DNA from: a virus
Reading direction: 5' to 3' (one strand)
Virus record (IMG/VR): IMGVR_UViG_3300024999_000390
Coordinates: 1-24,333 of that record
DNA length: 24,333 nt
Shown: positions 3,685 through 20,808 of the stretch, in pieces
Layout of the letters: each line of letters starts with the position of its first letter
Position numbering within the stretch: position 1 is the first letter of the stretch
Made by a program: the position numbers and the translations under genes
Notes under the pieces: model-generated
Seen by the model: the letters and a program-made list of their open reading frames with translations, nothing else
What the model was told of the DNA's origin: nothing
The model's database searches: none

Positions 3685-4272
3685 TTAGTTAAAGAAAGAT
3701 GGGATACTACCAGGAACTTTTTTCATTTCTTTTTCTTTAATAGAAATAAACATTGCATTCTTAGTGTTAGTTTCAACATCAGTGTTATCTTGAGTTGCAA
3801 TCATTTCTTTAAATTTCTTTGCACAAAGTTCTGCTTCTGCTTTCTTTAATCCTTCCAAATCAATAGCTTCAACAAAAGATTTAAGAGAATTTACTTCGCT
3901 TTCTTCAAAACCATTTTTAGTAATTTCTGTTTCAAAATAAGAATTTACTTCTGCAATTTTCGCTTCTGAATCTGCTTTAAATTTTTCTTCTCTAAAAGAA
4001 TTTACTTCAACAGTTAAAGATTCTTTTTCTGCTTTTTCAGATTCAAGTAATTTATTAACCTCTACAATAGTAGTGTTTAGTTCGACTACTTTATTATCTA
4101 GTTCTGTTGCTTTTTCAATTAGAGTATTAATTTCTGTTGCTTTTTCCTCCAAAGATTTAGTCAATGAATTGATATCTACTCCTTTTTGTTCTAGGGAGTT
4201 TGTAAGAGTATTAATTTCATTAATTTTATCTTCGATTTTTTTATTAAGTTCCAATACAATTTTTTCATCCAT
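3685..4272 (-). CDS. Possible separate scaffold protein from an internal in-frame start
   Basis: Inside the protease/scaffold gene an ATG at 4272 (MDEKIVLEL, residue 359 of the long form) is preceded by AAGGAGG with 11 bases between. Starting there would give a 195-residue protein made almost entirely of the coiled-coil scaffold. Nested in-frame scaffold genes are known in lambda (C/Nu3) and related phages. The ribosome-binding site also encodes Lys-Glu-Glu, so it could be a coincidence of codon choice, and the spacing is slightly long. Confidence 0.5.
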   Translation of the reverse strand: MDEKIVLELNKKIEDKINEINTLTNSLEQKGVDINSLTKSLEEKATEINTLIEKATELDNKVVELNTTIVEVNKLLESEKAEKESLTVEVNSFREEKFKADSEAKIAEVNSYFETEITKNGFEESEVNSLKSFVEAIDLEGLKKAEAELCAKKFKEMIATQDNTDVETNTKNAMFISIKEKEMKKVPGSIPSFFN

Positions 4273-5346
4273 TTTTTTACTTTCCTCCTTCGTTTGATTA
4301 TTTAATATATTAATCAGTGAATTGTTAATCTCTACTGGTTGACCACCATCAACTGGTGTCCATGACTCTTCAGCTTTTACAATATCACCAATAATAACCT
4401 TTGAACCTTCTACTGTGTATGTACTTTTATAATATTCTCCTGTTTTATAATAACTTTTCATCACAAATGTTGAACTAGTTGGATAAAATTTATGAATATA
4501 GAAATAGCAATATTCATCTGAACTGTTTTCTTTACTGAATTTTTTGTTGAATCCATTTTCAACTAATGTTGCAATATCTTTAATGTCCATTTCGTTTAGT
4601 TCAATCATTGTTTTACTAGGGATATTGTTGTCAGGAATGTTATTATTATTGTCATCTGGCAATATAGTGTCCCCCTTTCCTGTTATTTTATTATTTATAT
4701 CAAGGCTATTCTGTTTAGAATTCACCTCGAAAACAACGCTATTCTTATCGGATGGTTCAGTTAAATAAAGAATTGCCAATCCTGTCAGGTCAAATTTTAT
4801 CGGTATTCTACCATCCATCATACTGCCGTCTTCATTTACAGATCCATTTAAATATCCAATTTTCTTATCTTTACCTTTACCATTTATTTCAATTGAACCA
4901 TAAACTTTATTGGTAGATAATTCTTCTTTTAACCATTTAACAAATAAAGGATATCTTTGACTATATAAAAAACCTTCTGTCATAAGAAGTTTTTTTGTGA
5001 CTCCATCAATCTCAACATCTTCGATATAACATTCTTGAACTGAACCTACAGAGACTCCATCAAATTCAGCATAACCATCTTCACTAAACGACATAGTTCC
5101 ATGATCACTAGGAATTTGATTTTCTTCATCAAGCCAAGAAACAACATATGGCATTCCAATAGCAGATTTTATATTTTCATTAATGTGCTCTTCTAACCAT
5201 GAGATTCCATTTGAATTATAATACGAATTATCTGGAACAATTTCTAAAGCTGACATTCGGATTTTTGATCTTCCTGCAACATCTTCTTCGGACATTTCAC
5301 AAATTTCTATATATGTATTATTAGGAATTATTGTTGACTCATTCAC
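3685..5346 (-). CDS. Prohead protease fused to scaffold
   Basis: A 553-residue protein in two parts. The N-terminal part (about 1-215) is a globular domain in the place of the capsid maturation protease, with candidate residues in SDHGTMS and the later YGSIEING strand. After a Asn/Asp-rich linker (about 228-245) there is a second small domain of unknown role. The C-terminal part (about 355-520) is a long charged coiled coil with repeated EINTL, DINSL and EINTLIEK heptads, typical of a capsid scaffold. It ends in a short basic tail (KKVPGSIPSFFN), which could bind the capsid protein. The start is GTG at 5346, with AAAGGAGGTGA 9-10 bases upstream. It follows the portal gene by 35 bases. The scaffold part is well supported; the protease part is inferred from gene order, as its catalytic dyad cannot be fixed by eye. 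Confidence 0.7.
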   Translation of the reverse strand: MNESTIIPNNTYIEICEMSEEDVAGRSKIRMSALEIVPDNSYYNSNGISWLEEHINENIKSAIGMPYVVSWLDEENQIPSDHGTMSFSEDGYAEFDGVSVGSVQECYIEDVEIDGVTKKLLMTEGFLYSQRYPLFVKWLKEELSTNKVYGSIEINGKGKDKKIGYLNGSVNEDGSMMDGRIPIKFDLTGLAILYLTEPSDKNSVVFEVNSKQNSLDINNKITGKGDTILPDDNNNNIPDNNIPSKTMIELNEMDIKDIATLVENGFNKKFSKENSSDEYCYFYIHKFYPTSSTFVMKSYYKTGEYYKSTYTVEGSKVIIGDIVKAEESWTPVDGGQPVEINNSLINILNNQTKEESKKMDEKIVLELNKKIEDKINEINTLTNSLEQKGVDINSLTKSLEEKATEINTLIEKATELDNKVVELNTTIVEVNKLLESEKAEKESLTVEVNSFREEKFKADSEAKIAEVNSYFETEITKNGFEESEVNSLKSFVEAIDLEGLKKAEAELCAKKFKEMIATQDNTDVETNTKNAMFISIKEKEMKKVPGSIPSFFN

Positions 5347-5380: not shown

Positions 5381-6988
5381 TTATTTAGTTGATGGTTTTA
5401 CTTGATTGTTGCTATTTGTATTGCGAGTTACTTTTCCTCCGACACTTAAATCTTTCTCTTTTTTCAAAGGTGCTCCACCTCTAATATCACTAGAACTCAT
5501 TGTGTTTGCAGATTGATGAACAGGATATTTTTCTTCGTATCCCAATTCAATCTCTTCATCTAAACAGCTAAAGTAGTCCTCTACATCGAGTCCTGCACAA
5601 GCTACTAAATATCTTCTACTTCCTCCAATTAGTGTATATAAAGATTGTGCTTTTTCAAACATATCATCTTTATTCAACCAAGAAATTGGCAAATACTTAA
5701 TGTCAATATAATTTTTTGGTTTGATATCTAGTAATTCATTAATAACTCTGGTATATTCTATGGCTATTTCATTTACACATTGAAAAACCTGAGATGATAC
5801 TAAATCTAAATTCACTGCAAGATTTGCATAAGAACTACCACCAGAACTTTCTGCATTTAAAGCTGAACTTGCAAATCCTAAACTCGTACTGATCTTTTTC
5901 ATGTTTTCGTCACTCAAAGTATTTTCAACTAAAGAAGAATCTTTACTTAACCTATCTATTTTTGTCCCAGGAGCTAAACTAAGGGTTGAGATTTTGGCGT
6001 TTTCTCCACTTGTATTAACTTTTACAGCACCCTTAAAAGCTTCAATAACTTCTGTCTGTTGTTTCGCATTAAGACTGCAAGAGCCACTTTTTTCCCCTTC
6101 TGGGAGAATCATAAAGTATATACTACTAGCTAATTCACTGACTAATTGGTATTGACTGTCATTATAGTCACTACTTGCTTTCATATCAACAAACGCCGAC
6201 AACCCCAAAGGTCGTCCGTACGGTTCGTCCTCTCTTGCTTTGAATTTTAATGCAATAGTTTTTTTATAATCCAACGTGAACCATCTTTTACTTGGATTTT
6301 TCTTATAATCCATATATGCCTTCATAAATTCTTTTGGATAATTTTTGATTTCATTTACTAAACCACCATATTTAAATTGATCAAAATACATCATATCAAA
6401 ACCAGCAATTGATATATTATTCTGAAATCCTATTATTTTACAATAGTCTAAATCTAATGGTTGAATCATAAAATTATCATCTAATGATAATCCTTCAATT
6501 CTATCTATTGATTCAACTGTCATTGAACCAGTATCAAGATTTTTATTATTTGCAGAAGTATTTCTCAATACTCCTATATATGTTCCGAGTACAAATAAAT
6601 TTCGTAATATATCTCTAGTTGTTCTATCATGATTTAATAATTTTAAGTAAAGATTAACAGTTTTTTTCTTTTCTTTTAACTCTGGAGTCTTATTCCTCAT
6701 TGTTGTAATATGTGATAAAATTGGTATAGCAATGGAATAATCGCAAATGTTACTATATATTCCCTGAGAATTATATGCTTGTTCAGATATAGTTCTTAAT
6801 ATTTCATTATATATCATAGGATATTTTACATATTGTTTTAAATCGCTCATGGGTATATTATCGGTATCTAACATTCCTGTTGATATGGAATATGAATTAT
6901 AAGATAGAGAGTTAGTTTCGACTTCATTTGAAAATTGGTTAGAAGAAGGGGAGTCTGGAGTTTCTGTTGGGGTTGTTTTTTTTGTCAA
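5381..6988 (-). CDS. Portal protein
   Basis: A 535-residue protein that would form the dodecameric ring at the packaging vertex, binding the terminase and giving DNA its passage. It has a disordered Thr/Ser/Pro-rich N-terminus (1-30), an alpha/beta body, and a segment with KFKAREDEPYGRPLGLSAF followed by a long helix, as seen around the clip and stem of SPP1-type portals. SLGFASSALNAESSGGSSYAN is the region that usually precedes the crown helices. The C-terminus is basic and disordered. Length is normal for the family. The start is TTG at 6988, with AGGAGG 10 bases upstream and no better ATG. It lies directly downstream of the large terminase gene, the expected neighbour. Confidence 0.82.
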   Translation of the reverse strand: MTKKTTPTETPDSPSSNQFSNEVETNSLSYNSYSISTGMLDTDNIPMSDLKQYVKYPMIYNEILRTISEQAYNSQGIYSNICDYSIAIPILSHITTMRNKTPELKEKKKTVNLYLKLLNHDRTTRDILRNLFVLGTYIGVLRNTSANNKNLDTGSMTVESIDRIEGLSLDDNFMIQPLDLDYCKIIGFQNNISIAGFDMMYFDQFKYGGLVNEIKNYPKEFMKAYMDYKKNPSKRWFTLDYKKTIALKFKAREDEPYGRPLGLSAFVDMKASSDYNDSQYQLVSELASSIYFMILPEGEKSGSCSLNAKQQTEVIEAFKGAVKVNTSGENAKISTLSLAPGTKIDRLSKDSSLVENTLSDENMKKISTSLGFASSALNAESSGGSSYANLAVNLDLVSSQVFQCVNEIAIEYTRVINELLDIKPKNYIDIKYLPISWLNKDDMFEKAQSLYTLIGGSRRYLVACAGLDVEDYFSCLDEEIELGYEEKYPVHQSANTMSSSDIRGGAPLKKEKDLSVGGKVTRNTNSNNQVKPSTK

Positions 6989-16299: not shown

Positions 16300-17787
16300 T
16301 TAAACAGTAATACAATCATACACTGGATCATTTAATGTATTAATCATCGCTTCATAAGGCGTACAACCCATGTTCTTCAATATAGATTTAAATACTGATG
16401 CTGACTGACCACTTGCAAGTTGAACTCCCTTATAATCAGAAGTTACTTGAAATGTATCATGTCTACTATCAACATTCCAAAAAACTATATTTGGAATTTC
16501 ATATCCAGAATTAGAATACATTTTTTTCATTGATTCATAGAAAGTCCAATCTGTGTTTCCCCATCCATCAGTACAACTATCCATTTCCATGTCACTAATA
16601 ATTACAAGAGATTTTGGCATATCTTCAGCATTAAGATTATTTTTTACAGCAGTATTTAGAATCAACTCAAATGCTGATTGAAGATTTGTATTTTCTACAA
16701 TTGCAGGAATGCATTTAATTCTCTCATATAAAGTATCACCTTTGAGTTGCACAAATGATGGTTTAGATGAAAAAGTCATAAATATATCTTTAAATATTCC
16801 ATGATTTCTTTCAGCAAAATACATTGCCAATCCTACTGAAGTTGCCATAGGTCTTCCTGACATACTACCTGAAGTATCTGCCATAATAAGAACATTATTT
16901 TCACCTTCAATATAATTAGGTAATGCTTTCCATTGTTCTTCAAGAACTTTATCATAATTATTAAAAGATAGATTACTCCCATAATCATCTATTTCCATTT
17001 TTTCAAGAATATCATATGGAAATAAGGTGCTCGCATTTATTTTCTCTTCACCATTAGATACTTTCTCAATATATGAATTAAATCCTTCATCATCATGCTT
17101 TTGAAATGTTTTTCTATAAATATTCATTGCTCTTGAAGGAACAGCAGAATATTTAATCTCATCCCATTGTTTACTTGACATTTTAACTTCTACAACATCA
17201 AGATATTTTCTAAGAGATGATAGTGTTTTACGATATTGTTTCTCTGTTAAACCTAATTGTTTAGCAGTTAATTTTCCTAATTTATTTGATTCAATAGAAC
17301 TAGCATTGCAAGATTTTAACCATTTAGGCATAAGACTAATTGATTCATTATCTTTCATATTTTGTATATCAGAATTCCATTGTGCTTTAATCAAATTCCA
17401 CATTGCATTTTCTACTTCTGTTCCAATAAATTCATATAAATCGTCATATCTCCCAAAAGTAGGTATATGTTGAATATTCTTTTCTATAATTTTAGGATAT
17501 AATTTTGCAAGAAACTTGATTATAATTCGAAATACTTTTCTCTCACCAAGGCCACCAAATCTAACATCTCTTGCATAGTAAGCAATTTTCATTGCCAAAA
17601 GTTTATCTTCAGCAAATGCCTTACTAAATGCAATTTCTATTTCTTCATTTGATCTGGTTCTAAAAGATCCAATTTGTCCAAATAAATCTACCAATGAACT
17701 GTATGTGCTCTTTAAAGCAGTTGCACCATTCTCAGTCAATGTTAGATTATCTTCTTGTTTTAATGCATTTACAAAATTTTGATTCAA
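16300..17787 (-). CDS. Ro60/TROVE-like RNA-binding protein with C-terminal vWA domain (DUF2828-like)
   Basis: A 495-residue protein. Residues 1-285 are all-helical and resemble HEAT-like TROVE rings of Ro60/Rsr: KAFAEDKLLAMKIAYYARDVRFGGLGERKVFRIIIKFLA is a clear helical-repeat stretch, and HIPTFGRYDDLYEF matches the conserved G-R-x-D-D segment. Residues 297-480 form a von Willebrand A domain with the MIDAS DTSGS (304-308), a Thr at 367 and ISDMEMD (D399). This order is that of TROVE-vWA and DUF2828 proteins. Ro proteins bind Y RNAs and misfolded RNAs and can tether them to exonucleases. The start is TTG 17787, with AGAGGAG 8 bases upstream. An 893-base gene-free region with hairpin repeats precedes it. 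The domain assignment is good; whether it binds RNA in this phage is inference. Confidence 0.78.
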   Translation of the reverse strand: MNQNFVNALKQEDNLTLTENGATALKSTYSSLVDLFGQIGSFRTRSNEEIEIAFSKAFAEDKLLAMKIAYYARDVRFGGLGERKVFRIIIKFLAKLYPKIIEKNIQHIPTFGRYDDLYEFIGTEVENAMWNLIKAQWNSDIQNMKDNESISLMPKWLKSCNASSIESNKLGKLTAKQLGLTEKQYRKTLSSLRKYLDVVEVKMSSKQWDEIKYSAVPSRAMNIYRKTFQKHDDEGFNSYIEKVSNGEEKINASTLFPYDILEKMEIDDYGSNLSFNNYDKVLEEQWKALPNYIEGENNVLIMADTSGSMSGRPMATSVGLAMYFAERNHGIFKDIFMTFSSKPSFVQLKGDTLYERIKCIPAIVENTNLQSAFELILNTAVKNNLNAEDMPKSLVIISDMEMDSCTDGWGNTDWTFYESMKKMYSNSGYEIPNIVFWNVDSRHDTFQVTSDYKGVQLASGQSASVFKSILKNMGCTPYEAMINTLNDPVYDCITV

Positions 17788-17820
17788 TTAAATTACTCCT
17801 CTTTATTTTAAATTTATTGT

Positions 17821-18350
17821 TTACAAGATACATATTTAACTATTAATTCTTCAAAGTTTTTTAATTGGCTGTTAGTATCTTTGATAAATCTCTAGATGCA
17901 AAATATTTTAGTTTGATATTTGCTGTACGTATTAATTTTATATAGTTATTCGCTGTAAGCATCTAAGAGGATTATGGGGTTGGGAATGATTAGATTTTGA
18001 TTGAACATTAACCTGCTTGTTTATAATTTGCTGAAAAATGTCTTTTATCAAGATGTTTTAATTTAGTGTTTGATAGTTTGATAATTTTGTTTGTTGTAAT
18101 TATTGTTTTTTGTATTATTATATGTATTTTATTGCTGTATATATCTTTTACAAGATACAAATTTAGTTTTGTTTTTTTGAATTTAAAATATAATACTTAT
18201 ATTTTTGTTGCAGTAAACATCTTTTCAAGACACAGTTTGTTTGTTTGTTTGTCAATTGTTCTGTCCATTCACTCCCTATGATTATATCAAGACGCATTTT
18301 TAAATAAATCATAATTATTATTTGAAATTGCTGGATACGTCTTAAAATTT
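17821..18350 (-). repeat. Degenerate hairpin repeat family upstream of the Ro-like gene
   Basis: In plus orientation the unit is TTGCTGTA-nnn-ATCTT, a short loop, AAGAT-nC, then AAATTTAG. Full copies sit at 17867-17914, 18027-18067, 18131-18166 and 18206-18239. Half copies are at 17821-17831 and 18284-18295 (right half) and at 17918-17933, 17949-17968 and 18326-18344 (left half). Full copies fold as hairpins; on the minus strand the loops in two copies are GUAA and GAAA (GNRA type) and the hairpin is followed by TACAGCAA or a near match. The copies differ in sequence but keep ATCTT/AAGAT. No reading frame covers them. Possible roles are small RNA units, RNA regulatory elements of the Ro-like gene, or protein-binding sites. 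Confidence 0.65.
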
Positions 18351-18498
18351 ATTATTATGAAGAAATTACACTTGAAACCGAATTAATTAAAATCCGAGGA
18401 AGATAAATCTTCTATAATTCCTTCATAAAATCAATCAAATAATAATCACAATATCCATCTCTTATTCATAAAATCCATTATGCTATTTTTATAAACTC

Positions 18499-18610
18499 GA
18501 CTCTCAATCCTAAAGGCAACAGAGTCCCTCCATTTCTTTAAGTTCGATAGTAGTCAAGTGAGATGGAATATGTTATGATTTATTAATATAATTAGGTGGC
18601 AAAGCCTTCT
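18499..18610. other. Cluster of three hairpins in the gene-free region
   Basis: The rest of the gene-free stretch (18351-18680) has three further inverted repeats: GACTCT/AGAGTC (18499-18526), CCATTTC/GAGATGG (18530-18566) and AGGTGGC/GCCTTCT around AAA (18594-18610). The last two have G-U pairs only if the RNA is read from the plus strand; on the minus strand these become A-C mismatches. Local GC content is higher than in the flanks. No reading frame of useful length and no clear promoter were found. Confidence 0.4.
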
Positions 18611-18634
18611 GGTGATAACACTTTTTATCTTGCT

Positions 18635-18669
18635 ATGTAATAACTATTGTATAGCAATAGTTATTACAT
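18635..18669. repeat. Perfect 15-bp inverted repeat
   Basis: ATGTAATAACTATTG (18635-18649) is followed by a 5-base spacer and its exact reverse complement (18655-18669). It lies 11 bases after the stop of the small Cys-rich gene on the minus strand. There is no T tract on either side, so it is either a transcript-end stem or an operator-like site. The AT-rich perfect symmetry does not tell which. Confidence 0.75.
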
Positions 18670-18680
18670 ATTAGTATTTA

Positions 18681-18863
18681 CTACTCATCATCTTCAATTT
18701 CAACTTCTCCATCTAAAGATAAATACTGATCACAACCATTAATGGTAATATCTAAAATCCCAACTTGCTTTTTTGTTCCTTCAAGTTTATACAACTTAGT
18801 AGACCACTCACAAACACTAGTTTTTACACAAGATTCACAGTATTGGTTATTTAAGTTTGCCAT
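18681..18863 (-). CDS. Small Cys-rich protein
   Basis: A 60-residue protein starting MANLNNQYCESCVKTSVCEW. C9, C12 and C18, with a later C44, could form a small metal site. The C-terminus is acidic (VEIEDDE). I recognise no family. The ATG has AAGGTGG upstream, in a leader (AAAAGGTGGAATAATT) nearly identical to that of the HU-like gene, which suggests one was copied from the other or that both share translational control. It follows the tRNA and probably shares its transcript. Confidence 0.65.
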   Translation of the reverse strand: MANLNNQYCESCVKTSVCEWSTKLYKLEGTKKQVGILDITINGCDQYLSLDGEVEIEDDE

Positions 18864-19557: not shown

Positions 19558-20808
19558 CTAATCATGCCAATTCATTTCACTAACCATTTTGCTAATCTCA
19601 CTTCTATAATCTTCTACCATATTAACTTGTGCTGATATTACTTTATTCCTAAAATTTTCACTTGCAACTGTTAATCCATTCCTATGTTTACAATATCTAT
19701 TGTCAATCTGCCTTGTAGACCCATCTAATAAAACAACTGTATCTTCTCCAATTCTAGAAAGTAATCTTTCCATCTCTGAAGGAGTAAAATCTTGTGCTTC
19801 TGTAATAAATAGAATAGAATTACGCAAACTGCGAGATTTAGCAAATTGTATTGGTAAAACTTCAATTTTATTATTTCTATTCATAAATTCACTAATACTA
19901 TCTTCAGATGTTGTATCACATAAAACACCTAAAATTCCTTCACTCTTTTCTAGTATACCGCCTGGGATCGCAGGATAGGGTTTTCTATTATCTGGTGGCG
20001 AATCGCTTTTTACAAAATACATTTTATTATATCTACCATTGTTGTTGCTTCCTAATTGTTGTAAGGCCCAATGTAACATAATATAACTTTTCCCAGCTCC
20101 GTAAATTGAATCTGTAATCATGATTTTTACATTTTCATTCTGAAGCATATGTATAAAAGCTTTTTGATAAAGATCATAAGGGACAACTGCATCTTTTGTA
20201 CTAAGATATTTATTTGTTATTGGTTTTACCTTAACTTCTTCAAGATATTCACCATTCCACATATATAAATACTGTTCATCTTTTGTCGTGTTATTTATAA
20301 TTACATATTCATTTGGGAAACAATCAAGTTGATTTATTTCACTATCTCTTACTCTTACATAGTCTCTTTCTGTTAAAAATACTTCTTTAATTCCATTGTA
20401 TTTTTCTGAATTATCTTCACTTTGACTCCCAAACTTTTCACAAGGGATATCAATGGAATCACAAGTAAACCTAAACAAAATATCATTACTTAATGCAATT
20501 ATTTCATTGTCTTTAGCACATAATTCTCTAATATTTGATATAATCCTATTATCAACAATATCTTTATCAAAACATTCTGGCATATCATACTTATTTTCAC
20601 TAACAAAATAAACTACTTTATCTCTGTTTGCCTCGATATCTCTACATGCTCGTCTAGATAAATATTTCTTTTCCTCATTTTGACTATGTTTATTTCTCTC
20701 TAATTCACGGAGAACATAACCTACAATGAACACCTTATCAAATTGTTCAAATAATTCTTTAGAATATTGCATCAGGCAATTGGTGTCACTAGAACACTTT
20801 TTCTGCAA
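19558..20808 (-). CDS. PIN-PhoH protein
   Basis: A 416-residue protein with an N-terminal PIN ribonuclease domain (about 1-125) and a C-terminal PhoH ATPase (about 205-400). The PIN part begins SSDTNCLMQY (first acidic D8), continues VGYVLRELER (E35 region), and ends with KDNEIIALSNDI. PhoH has SIYGAGKSYIMLHWAL (234-249) for the P-loop and SILFITEAQDFTPSEMERLLSRIG followed by DGSTRQID, close to the family E-A-Q...T-P...L-x-R-x-G...G-D-x-x-Q-x-D. Two canonical residues differ: the first P-loop Gly is S234, and the Walker B acid before E337 is Thr. PIN-PhoH proteins are RNA helicase/nucleases. The start is TTG at 20808, with AGGTGG 12 bases upstream; a TAG closes the frame 21 bases before it. 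Confidence 0.82.
   Translation of the reverse strand: MQKKCSSDTNCLMQYSKELFEQFDKVFIVGYVLRELERNKHSQNEEKKYLSRRACRDIEANRDKVVYFVSENKYDMPECFDKDIVDNRIISNIRELCAKDNEIIALSNDILFRFTCDSIDIPCEKFGSQSEDNSEKYNGIKEVFLTERDYVRVRDSEINQLDCFPNEYVIINNTTKDEQYLYMWNGEYLEEVKVKPITNKYLSTKDAVVPYDLYQKAFIHMLQNENVKIMITDSIYGAGKSYIMLHWALQQLGSNNNGRYNKMYFVKSDSPPDNRKPYPAIPGGILEKSEGILGVLCDTTSEDSISEFMNRNNKIEVLPIQFAKSRSLRNSILFITEAQDFTPSEMERLLSRIGEDTVVLLDGSTRQIDNRYCKHRNGLTVASENFRNKVISAQVNMVEDYRSEISKMVSEMNWHD

What the first reader, a model, noticed from the sequence alone, without database searches (positions are those of the whole stretch)
17788..18680. Hairpin repeat family directly upstream of a phage Ro60-like gene
Four full and at least five half copies of a unit (ATCTT-loop-AAGAT joined to TACAGCAA on the minus strand) fill an 893-base gene-free region that leads into the Ro-like gene. 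The stem is kept while flanking bases drift, and GNRA-type loops appear in two copies. Bacterial Ro proteins are often encoded next to their Y RNAs, so this may be an unusual multi-hairpin RNA partner or a feedback element bound by the Ro-like protein. The repeats do not show the known Y RNA tRNA-like module, so this would be a new type.
Basis: partly seen in the sequence, partly recalled or inferred. Interest (0 to 1): 0.72.

Follow-up and report, generated by a model that had tools for sequence, protein, structure and literature searches.

The report
Phage Y-RNA-like hairpins beside Ro-like gene
The repeats ahead of this phage gene belong to a widespread, apparently uncatalogued family of small structured RNAs that travel with a Ro60-fold protein; in many relatives they display mock tRNA anticodon loops or rearranged whole tRNAs, possibly as bait for host enzymes that cut tRNAs.

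Summary
The unit is arm, 0-2 nt, ACAGCAA, loop, complementary arm, G. Three clear units lie on the minus strand at 17824-17882, 17892-17966 and 18288-18344. A covariance model built only from other phages ranks these three first in the whole window (E 3e-6 to 1.5e-5). Degenerate units fill 18030-18240; 18350-18680 has none.

The neighbouring gene is DUF2828/DUF7788. Its predicted fold matches the Ro autoantigen best (Foldseek E 6e-7).

The motif is tied to this gene family. A protein-blind IMG/VR scan gave 68 stretches (scrambled core: 2); 51 of 68 have DUF2828 on the contig. Strand agreed in 99 of 99 comparisons. Stems covary strongly.

In relatives, short loops often carry anticodon stem-loop mimics (CUNNNAA in 26 of 167 loops, 0.25 expected; UUU, the lysine anticodon, commonest). 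Long loops carry circularly permuted tRNAs. The architecture resembles bacterial Y RNA (YrlA), but the core differs, Rfam YrlA is not met, and no anticodon-arm mimic is described for YrlA.

Best reading: Y-RNA-like partners of a phage Ro60-fold ring, possibly anticodon-nuclease decoys. Protein binding and decoy action are inferred.

The parts
16300..17787 (-). DUF2828/DUF7788 gene (495 aa, TTG start), Ro60-fold protein, presumed partner of the RNA units
   Evidence: Pfam PF11443 E 1.7e-43 and PF25043 E 8.9e-39; PHROG 850 'RNA-binding protein' E 6.6e-141; AlphaFold pLDDT 92.1; Foldseek best PDB match 1yvr Ro autoantigen E 6.4e-7
17797..17803 (-). Ribosome-binding site AGAGGAG of the DUF2828 gene, just downstream of the last unit
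   Evidence: Sequence
17824..17882 (-). Unit nearest the gene: AAGATAC-TA-ACAGCCA-34 nt loop-GTATCTT-G
   Evidence: R1 covariance model 32.1 bits, E 3.4e-6; stem; L001 homologue 38.5 bits
17892..17966 (-). Unit: TTAGATGC-TT-ACAGCGA-50 nt loop-GCATCTAG; a second, poorly conserved ACAGCAA lies inside its loop (17920-17926)
   Evidence: R1 29.7 bits, E 1.5e-5; stem; L001 homologue has the exact core ACAGCAA, 35.3 bits
18288..18344 (-). Unit farthest from the gene: AAGACGTAT-CCAGCAA-30 nt loop-ATGCGTCTT-G; loop holds a weak anticodon-arm candidate (UUAUGAU closed by 5 A-U pairs), identical in L001
   Evidence: R1 30.2 bits, E 1.1e-5; stem; L001 homologue 32.1 bits; hairpin check
18151..18224 (-). 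Weak unit with core ACTGCAA and arms AAGATGT/GTATCTT
   Evidence: R1 12.6 bits, E 0.36 only
18030..18240 (-). Block of degenerate units (cores ACTGCAA, ACAGCAA, TCAGCAA) whose arms can pair with neighbours as nested helices
   Evidence: Minimum free energy -24.4 kcal/mol, z -2.71, 0 of 200 shuffles as stable; arms conserved in L001

Best explanation
The leader encodes an array of Y-RNA-like units. Each folds into a 7-9 bp stem with a conserved ACAGCAA on the 5' side, the likely binding handle for the adjacent DUF2828 protein, a phage Ro60-fold ring. The loop beyond ACAGCAA is a variable display part; in relatives it carries an anticodon stem-loop mimic or a circularly permuted tRNA. In this phage the loops are AT-rich and largely featureless, so these copies may be partly decayed, or may serve mainly as protein-binding or feedback sites in the gene's own mRNA leader. 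Shown: the unit, its stem covariation, its linkage and strand agreement with DUF2828, the predicted Ro60 fold, and the mimicry in relatives. Inferred: transcription, direct binding and biological action. For the action I favour an RNP that presents tRNA look-alikes, most plausibly as bait or sensor for host anticodon nucleases (about 0.4), with autoregulation through leader units as a second role. The stated confidence is for the Y-RNA-like partner reading, not for the decoy step.
For: Three best model matches of the whole window, both strands, are the leader units, with a model that excludes this phage and L001. Protein-blind scan: 68 stretches against 2 for a scrambled core; DUF2828 in the fetched DNA of 36 and elsewhere on the contig of 15 more. 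Strand same 99, opposite 0. In DUF2828 loci 302 of 501 gene-strand ACAGCAA words have a stem of 7 bp or more, 0 of 56 on the other strand. Covariation 0.626 against 0.182 shuffled. Bacterial genomes: 28 of 49 stretches with DUF2828 in the fetched DNA, same strand. Units in 26 of 27 DUF2828 phage records, none in T4 or T5. Ro60 fold. Anticodon-arm mimics and permuted tRNAs in relatives, as in YrlA architecture.
Against: No transcript or binding data. The window's loops lack a clear anticodon arm or tRNA module. Outer-stem pairing was part of the unit selection, so its pairing rate is not independent evidence. In Ochrobactrum phage OC the units lie about 50 kb from the gene. Some large motif-bearing contigs show no DUF2828, though they may be incomplete.
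Confidence: 0.78

Rival explanations
1. The units are cis-acting leader elements only: DUF2828 protein binds stem-ACAGCAA sites in its own mRNA leader and represses its translation; no free RNA is made.
For: In the window the last unit ends just before the ribosome-binding site; 74 of 99 pattern hits lie upstream of the gene, many within 30-100 nt of it.
Against: 25 of 99 lie downstream of the gene; some are kilobases away or among tRNA genes; anticodon arms and permuted tRNAs in the loops have no need in a plain operator. Not exclusive with the best explanation.
Confidence: 0.15
2. The units are processing signals of phage tRNA arrays (for RNase III, RNase E or RNase P), and DUF2828 is linked only because it sits by tRNA arrays.
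For: DUF2828 genes often lie in or beside tRNA clusters.
Against: The window, Staphylococcus and Campylobacter units occur with few or no tRNAs nearby; the large tRNA arrays of T4 and T5 have no unit; an invariant ACAGCAA and anticodon-arm loops are not needed for processing.
Confidence: 0.04
3. The long-loop units are permuted tRNA genes that mature into working tRNAs, and short units are their remnants.
For: Some loops hold a complete permuted tRNA including the anticodon arm.
Against: The acceptor arm is closed by a loop of only a few bases in many cases, and no ends for charging are evident; most units carry only an anticodon arm or no tRNA part.
Confidence: 0.04
4. The repeats act as DNA: iterons, operators or recombination sites, not RNA.
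For: They are short repeats in a gene-free AT-rich stretch.
Against: Complete strand agreement (99:0), 155 different arm sequences with compensatory pairs, and specific enrichment of 7-nt anticodon-type loops all point to RNA.
Confidence: 0.03

Closest known systems
YrlA, bacterial Y RNA (Rfam RF02553), partner of Rsr (bacterial Ro60)
   Same: Encoded near a Ro60-fold protein; basal stem with conserved unpaired bases as presumed protein handle; in many relatives a permuted tRNA-like module (T-arm, closed acceptor, D-arm) beyond the stem. Sub-threshold YrlA matches fall in such units (47.8 and 37.7 bits).
   Different: None reaches the 69-bit cut-off; the YrlA consensus has no ACAGCAA and neither do the bacterial YrlA sequences read here at the corresponding place. 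YrlA is described with D, T and acceptor arms (PMC8394870), whereas many units here have an anticodon arm, alone or with the rest. The window's units have no tRNA module. Here 2-9 copies occur per phage.
Ro60 / Rsr (TROVE, PF05731)
   Same: Predicted fold of the DUF2828 protein: helical ring plus von Willebrand A domain; best PDB match is Xenopus Ro autoantigen. Phage members are annotated 'Ro-like RNA binding protein'.
   Different: No TROVE match by sequence and no Ro60 hit by profile against the PDB; different Pfam families.
Phage tRNAs that evade anticodon nucleases
   Same: tRNA-like phage RNAs with lysine prominent; PARIS AriB cuts tRNA-Lys and a phage tRNA-Lys with changed anticodon stem-loop escapes (PMC11455837).
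   Different: Those are working tRNAs with altered loops. The units here are isolated anticodon arms or permuted tRNAs with a closed acceptor, unlikely to be charged.

Membership tests
YrlA (Rfam RF02553) | Covariance-model score above the curated cut-off (69 bits) | tested here: not met
   No match in the window; best in related phages 47.8 bits
YrlA (Rfam RF02553) | tRNA-like domain (T, acceptor, D arms) beyond the basal stem | tested here: not met
   Not in the window's units; present in 22 long-loop units of relatives
Y RNA (functional class) | Encoded close to a Ro60-type gene | tested here: met
   Units directly upstream of a Ro60-fold gene; linkage general
Y RNA (functional class) | Stem formed by the two ends, with conserved unpaired residues next to it | tested here: met
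   7-9 bp stem and ACAGCAA, covariation
Y RNA (functional class) | Bound by the Ro protein as a stable small RNA | not testable with these tools
   Needs pull-down or binding assay
Ro60 / TROVE protein | Match to PF05731 by sequence | tested here: not met
   DUF2828 and DUF7788 only
Ro60 / TROVE protein | Helical-repeat ring plus von Willebrand A domain fold | tested here: met
   Foldseek 1yvr E 6.4e-7, TM 0.59; 9kop E 1.2e-6; weak VWA_2 match
ACAGCAA-stem family of DUF2828 phages (defined here, model R1) | Match to a model that excludes the tested phage | tested here: met
   Three units, E 3.4e-6 to 1.5e-5, top of the window on both strands
Anticodon-nuclease decoy | Displays an anticodon stem-loop | tested here: inconclusive
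   Strong in relatives; in the window only one weak AT-rich candidate
Anticodon-nuclease decoy | Bound or cut by an anticodon nuclease so that tRNAs are spared | not testable with these tools
   Needs biochemistry and infection assays

The most novel reading that the evidence does not exclude
Phages of many host groups carry a ribonucleoprotein counter-defence: a Ro60-fold DUF2828 ring holds multi-copy RNAs through a stem-ACAGCAA handle, and these present isolated anticodon stem-loops (lysine UUU and asparagine GUU most often) or permuted, probably unchargeable tRNAs as bait or sensors for host anticodon nucleases.
Probability: 0.38. Interest if true: 0.88.

Novelty: new variant of a known kind. 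Interest (0 to 1): 0.76.

Why it matters
Ro60 and Y RNAs occur from bacteria to humans, yet what bacterial and phage versions do is still largely open. This gives a precise, searchable RNA signature (stem plus ACAGCAA) for the likely partners of phage DUF2828 proteins, which occur in 681 of 50,697 phage records and are annotated at best as RNA-binding. It also shows that the variable part of these RNAs mimics anticodon arms, so a concrete function becomes testable: bait for, or sensing of, tRNA-cutting defence enzymes.

Tried and rejected
Known RNA families: Rfam at gathering and lax thresholds gave only tRNA in the window, and tRNA or sub-threshold YrlA in relatives. GNRA loops: explained as inter-unit linkers. 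Sequence link from DUF2828 to Ro60 by profile against the PDB: none; the link is structural only. T4 and T5 stable RNAs of unknown function (T4 rnaC/rnaD; T5 RNA1, RNA2 and others) were checked as possible members: no ACAGCAA in them and no R1 match. TROVE in motif-bearing contigs lacking nearby DUF2828: none in 32. A group I intron in L001's DUF2828 gene: no Rfam intron match. Literature: no open paper was found that describes an ACAGCAA motif or DUF2828-linked RNAs. Chen et al. 2014 (RNA 20:1715), whose abstract as I remember it reports likely Y RNAs near Ro60 in more than 250 bacterial and phage species, could not be read here, so some of these phage RNAs may already be listed there.

Full report
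WHAT IS IN THE WINDOW. The window is a whole 24,333-base IMG/VR virus record with portal, terminase and protease genes of a tailed phage. The gene at 16300-17787(-) is DUF2828 plus DUF7788. Dinucleotide shuffles of the leader give 0.026 such units on average and never three (2000 shuffles). The block 18030-18240 holds degenerate cores whose arms can pair with neighbours as nested helices (z = -2.7). No unit lies in 18350-18680. The close relative L001 keeps the leader (84% identity) while its upstream genes differ.

HOW THE UNIT WAS RECOGNISED. Upstream regions of distant DUF2828 phages show the same layout with different arms, for example GGGACAC-TC-ACAGCAA...GTGTCCC in L002, AAGACACTA-ACAGCAA...TAGTGTCTT in Bacillus phage BcoS-136, ATGGTACT-A-ACAGCAA...AGTACCAT in a Campylobacter phage and TGGACACA-G-ACAGCAA...TGTGTCCA in mycobacteriophage Lolly9. 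Over all DUF2828-bearing loci fetched, 501 distinct ACAGCAA words lie on the gene strand and 56 on the other; 302 of the 501, and none of the 56, have a stem of at least 7 Watson-Crick pairs. There are 155 different arm sequences.

UNBIASED LINKAGE. A DNA pattern that knows nothing of the protein (GACACTNACAGCAAN{25,54}GTGTCYWG) gave 68 stretches in IMG/VR; the same pattern with a scrambled core gave 2. DUF2828 is in the fetched DNA of 36 and elsewhere on the contig of 15 of the other 32; none of those 32 contigs has TROVE. A second pattern gave 112 stretches, 59 with DUF2828 in the fetched DNA. Where positions could be compared the strand agreed in 99 of 99, with 74 upstream, 25 downstream and none inside the gene. 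For scale, 681 of 50,697 phage records carry the protein. A scan of bacterial genomes gave 49 stretches, 28 with DUF2828 within the fetched DNA, all on the same strand.

COVARIATION AND MODEL. An alignment of 47 units with different arms, without the window or L001, gave a covariation score of 0.626 against 0.182 for shuffles. The outer stem was part of the selection, so its pairing rate is not independent; the inner helix (the anticodon arm) was not selected, and all five of its pairs show double changes. The covariance model R1 ranks the three window units first on both strands of the window (E 3.4e-6, 1.1e-5, 1.5e-5; the next is 0.36) and finds L001's units. E-values are rough because calibration was short. 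Over whole records R1 finds units in 26 of 27 DUF2828 phage records, including ones that contributed nothing to the model (BcoS-136, PJN02, VRE9_3, Ochrobactrum OC, Synechococcus B23, L003, L007). Reading the coordinates, all 82 matches lie on the DUF2828 strand. T4 and T5, which to my knowledge lack the gene, give none. The one DUF2828 record missed at that threshold, a Felix-like phage, has two visible units.

WHAT THE LOOPS CARRY. Loops fall into a class of up to 60 nt and a longer class of up to 115 nt. In the short class, hairpins with 7-nt loops stand out (96 units against 35 in shuffles; other loop sizes stay near expectation). With near-duplicates removed, 26 of 167 loops have a stem of at least 5 bp closing CUNNNAA, against 0.25 expected and at most 3 in 200 shuffles; four control patterns of like composition gave 0. 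With a 4-bp minimum the commonest anticodons are UUU (9), GUU (7) and UGA (4). These look like anticodon arms of tRNA-Lys, tRNA-Asn and tRNA-Ser. In the long class 52 of 88 loops have a T-arm (0.3 in shuffles), and 22 have T-arm, closed acceptor hairpin and D-arm in that permuted order, some also with an anticodon arm. In L002, L005 and L006 the core sits instead in the anticodon region of a normally ordered tRNA, next to a helix closed by a small loop. The window's nearest relatives (L058 73%, L092 69%, L114 64% protein identity) have anticodon-arm units. The window's own loops are AT-rich; only the 18288-18344 unit has a candidate (UUAUGAU closed by 5 A-U pairs, identical in L001), which is weak.

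THE PROTEIN. The AlphaFold model (58-sequence alignment) has pLDDT 92.1. The two best Foldseek matches are the Xenopus Ro autoantigen (1yvr, E 6.4e-7, TM 0.59) and a TROVE domain (9kop, E 1.2e-6), the only ones below 0.001. Sequence profiles do not reach Ro60. So the DUF2828 protein has a predicted Ro60 fold but is not a TROVE family member by sequence.

MECHANISM. Shown: unit, covariation, strand-specific linkage, predicted Ro60 fold, mimicry in relatives. Inferred: the stem-ACAGCAA part is the handle bound by the protein, because it is the constant part in phages that share little but this gene; the loop is a display part. Hughes et al. [quoted passage not shown] PARIS AriB cuts tRNA-Lys (PMC11455837), and Cas13a cuts U-rich anticodons, even in unmodified tRNA-Lys (PMC11042736). 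Anticodon arms shown without a usable acceptor end fit a decoy or sensor better than translation. A PNPase-tethering role, as for YrlA (PMC8394870), and autoregulation through leader units remain open.

KNOWN OR NEW. Y RNAs beside Ro60 proteins are known, and phages have been said to carry YrlA (PMC7765460). The units here fail YrlA membership (score, core sequence, and the tRNA module in this window) but share its architecture. An anticodon-arm display and the ACAGCAA handle were not found in Rfam or in the open literature searched; the key 2014 paper could not be read. I therefore file this as a new variant of a known kind, with the window's array a plain and perhaps partly decayed member of it.

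Noticed in passing
L001 3781-6086: The DUF2828 gene of the closest relative is interrupted by a LAGLIDADG-type endonuclease ORF (4217-5062); no Rfam intron family matches there.
   Followed up: partly
L001 3194-3245: An extra unit with intact AAGACACT/GTGTCTAG arms but a deleted ACAGC core, which suggests that units decay by core loss.
   Followed up: no
Ochrobactrum phage OC (MT028491.1) 157400-157699: Three strong units lie about 50 kb from the DUF2828 gene, so the RNA can be encoded in trans.
   Followed up: no
L217, L228, L248: Clostridium tertium, C. sartagoforme and C. gasigenes genomes have a unit next to a divergent DUF2828 gene on the same strand; prophage or chromosomal system not decided.
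   Followed up: no
L007 about 800-1905: An RtcB-like RNA ligase reading frame (my reading of the DNA, not searched) lies directly upstream of the DUF2828 gene, recalling the bacterial rsr-yrlBA-rtcBA RNA repair operon.
   Followed up: no
L008 around 1940-2040 and 2135-2240; L015 around 6559-6660; L002 4691-4816: The tRNA body is opened at different points in different units (T-arm/acceptor junction, anticodon region, D-arm/anticodon-arm junction), as if the handle had been joined to tRNAs several times.
   Followed up: partly
window 18634-18670: Perfect 16-bp inverted repeat with a 5-nt loop just after the stop of the small ORF 18681-18863(-), without a T-run on either strand.
   Followed up: no
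window 18350-18640: Non-coding stretch without units, with a long imperfect inverted repeat (18434-18461 with 18560-18587); unexplained and not conserved in L001.
   Followed up: no
window 19558-20808: PIN domain fused to a PhoH-like ATPase, another possible RNA-acting protein near the Ro-like gene.
   Followed up: no
L261 10285-13950; L262 10909-11172: T5 and T4 tRNA clusters contain annotated stable RNAs of unknown function, some called tRNA-like; they are not members of this family.
   Followed up: partly
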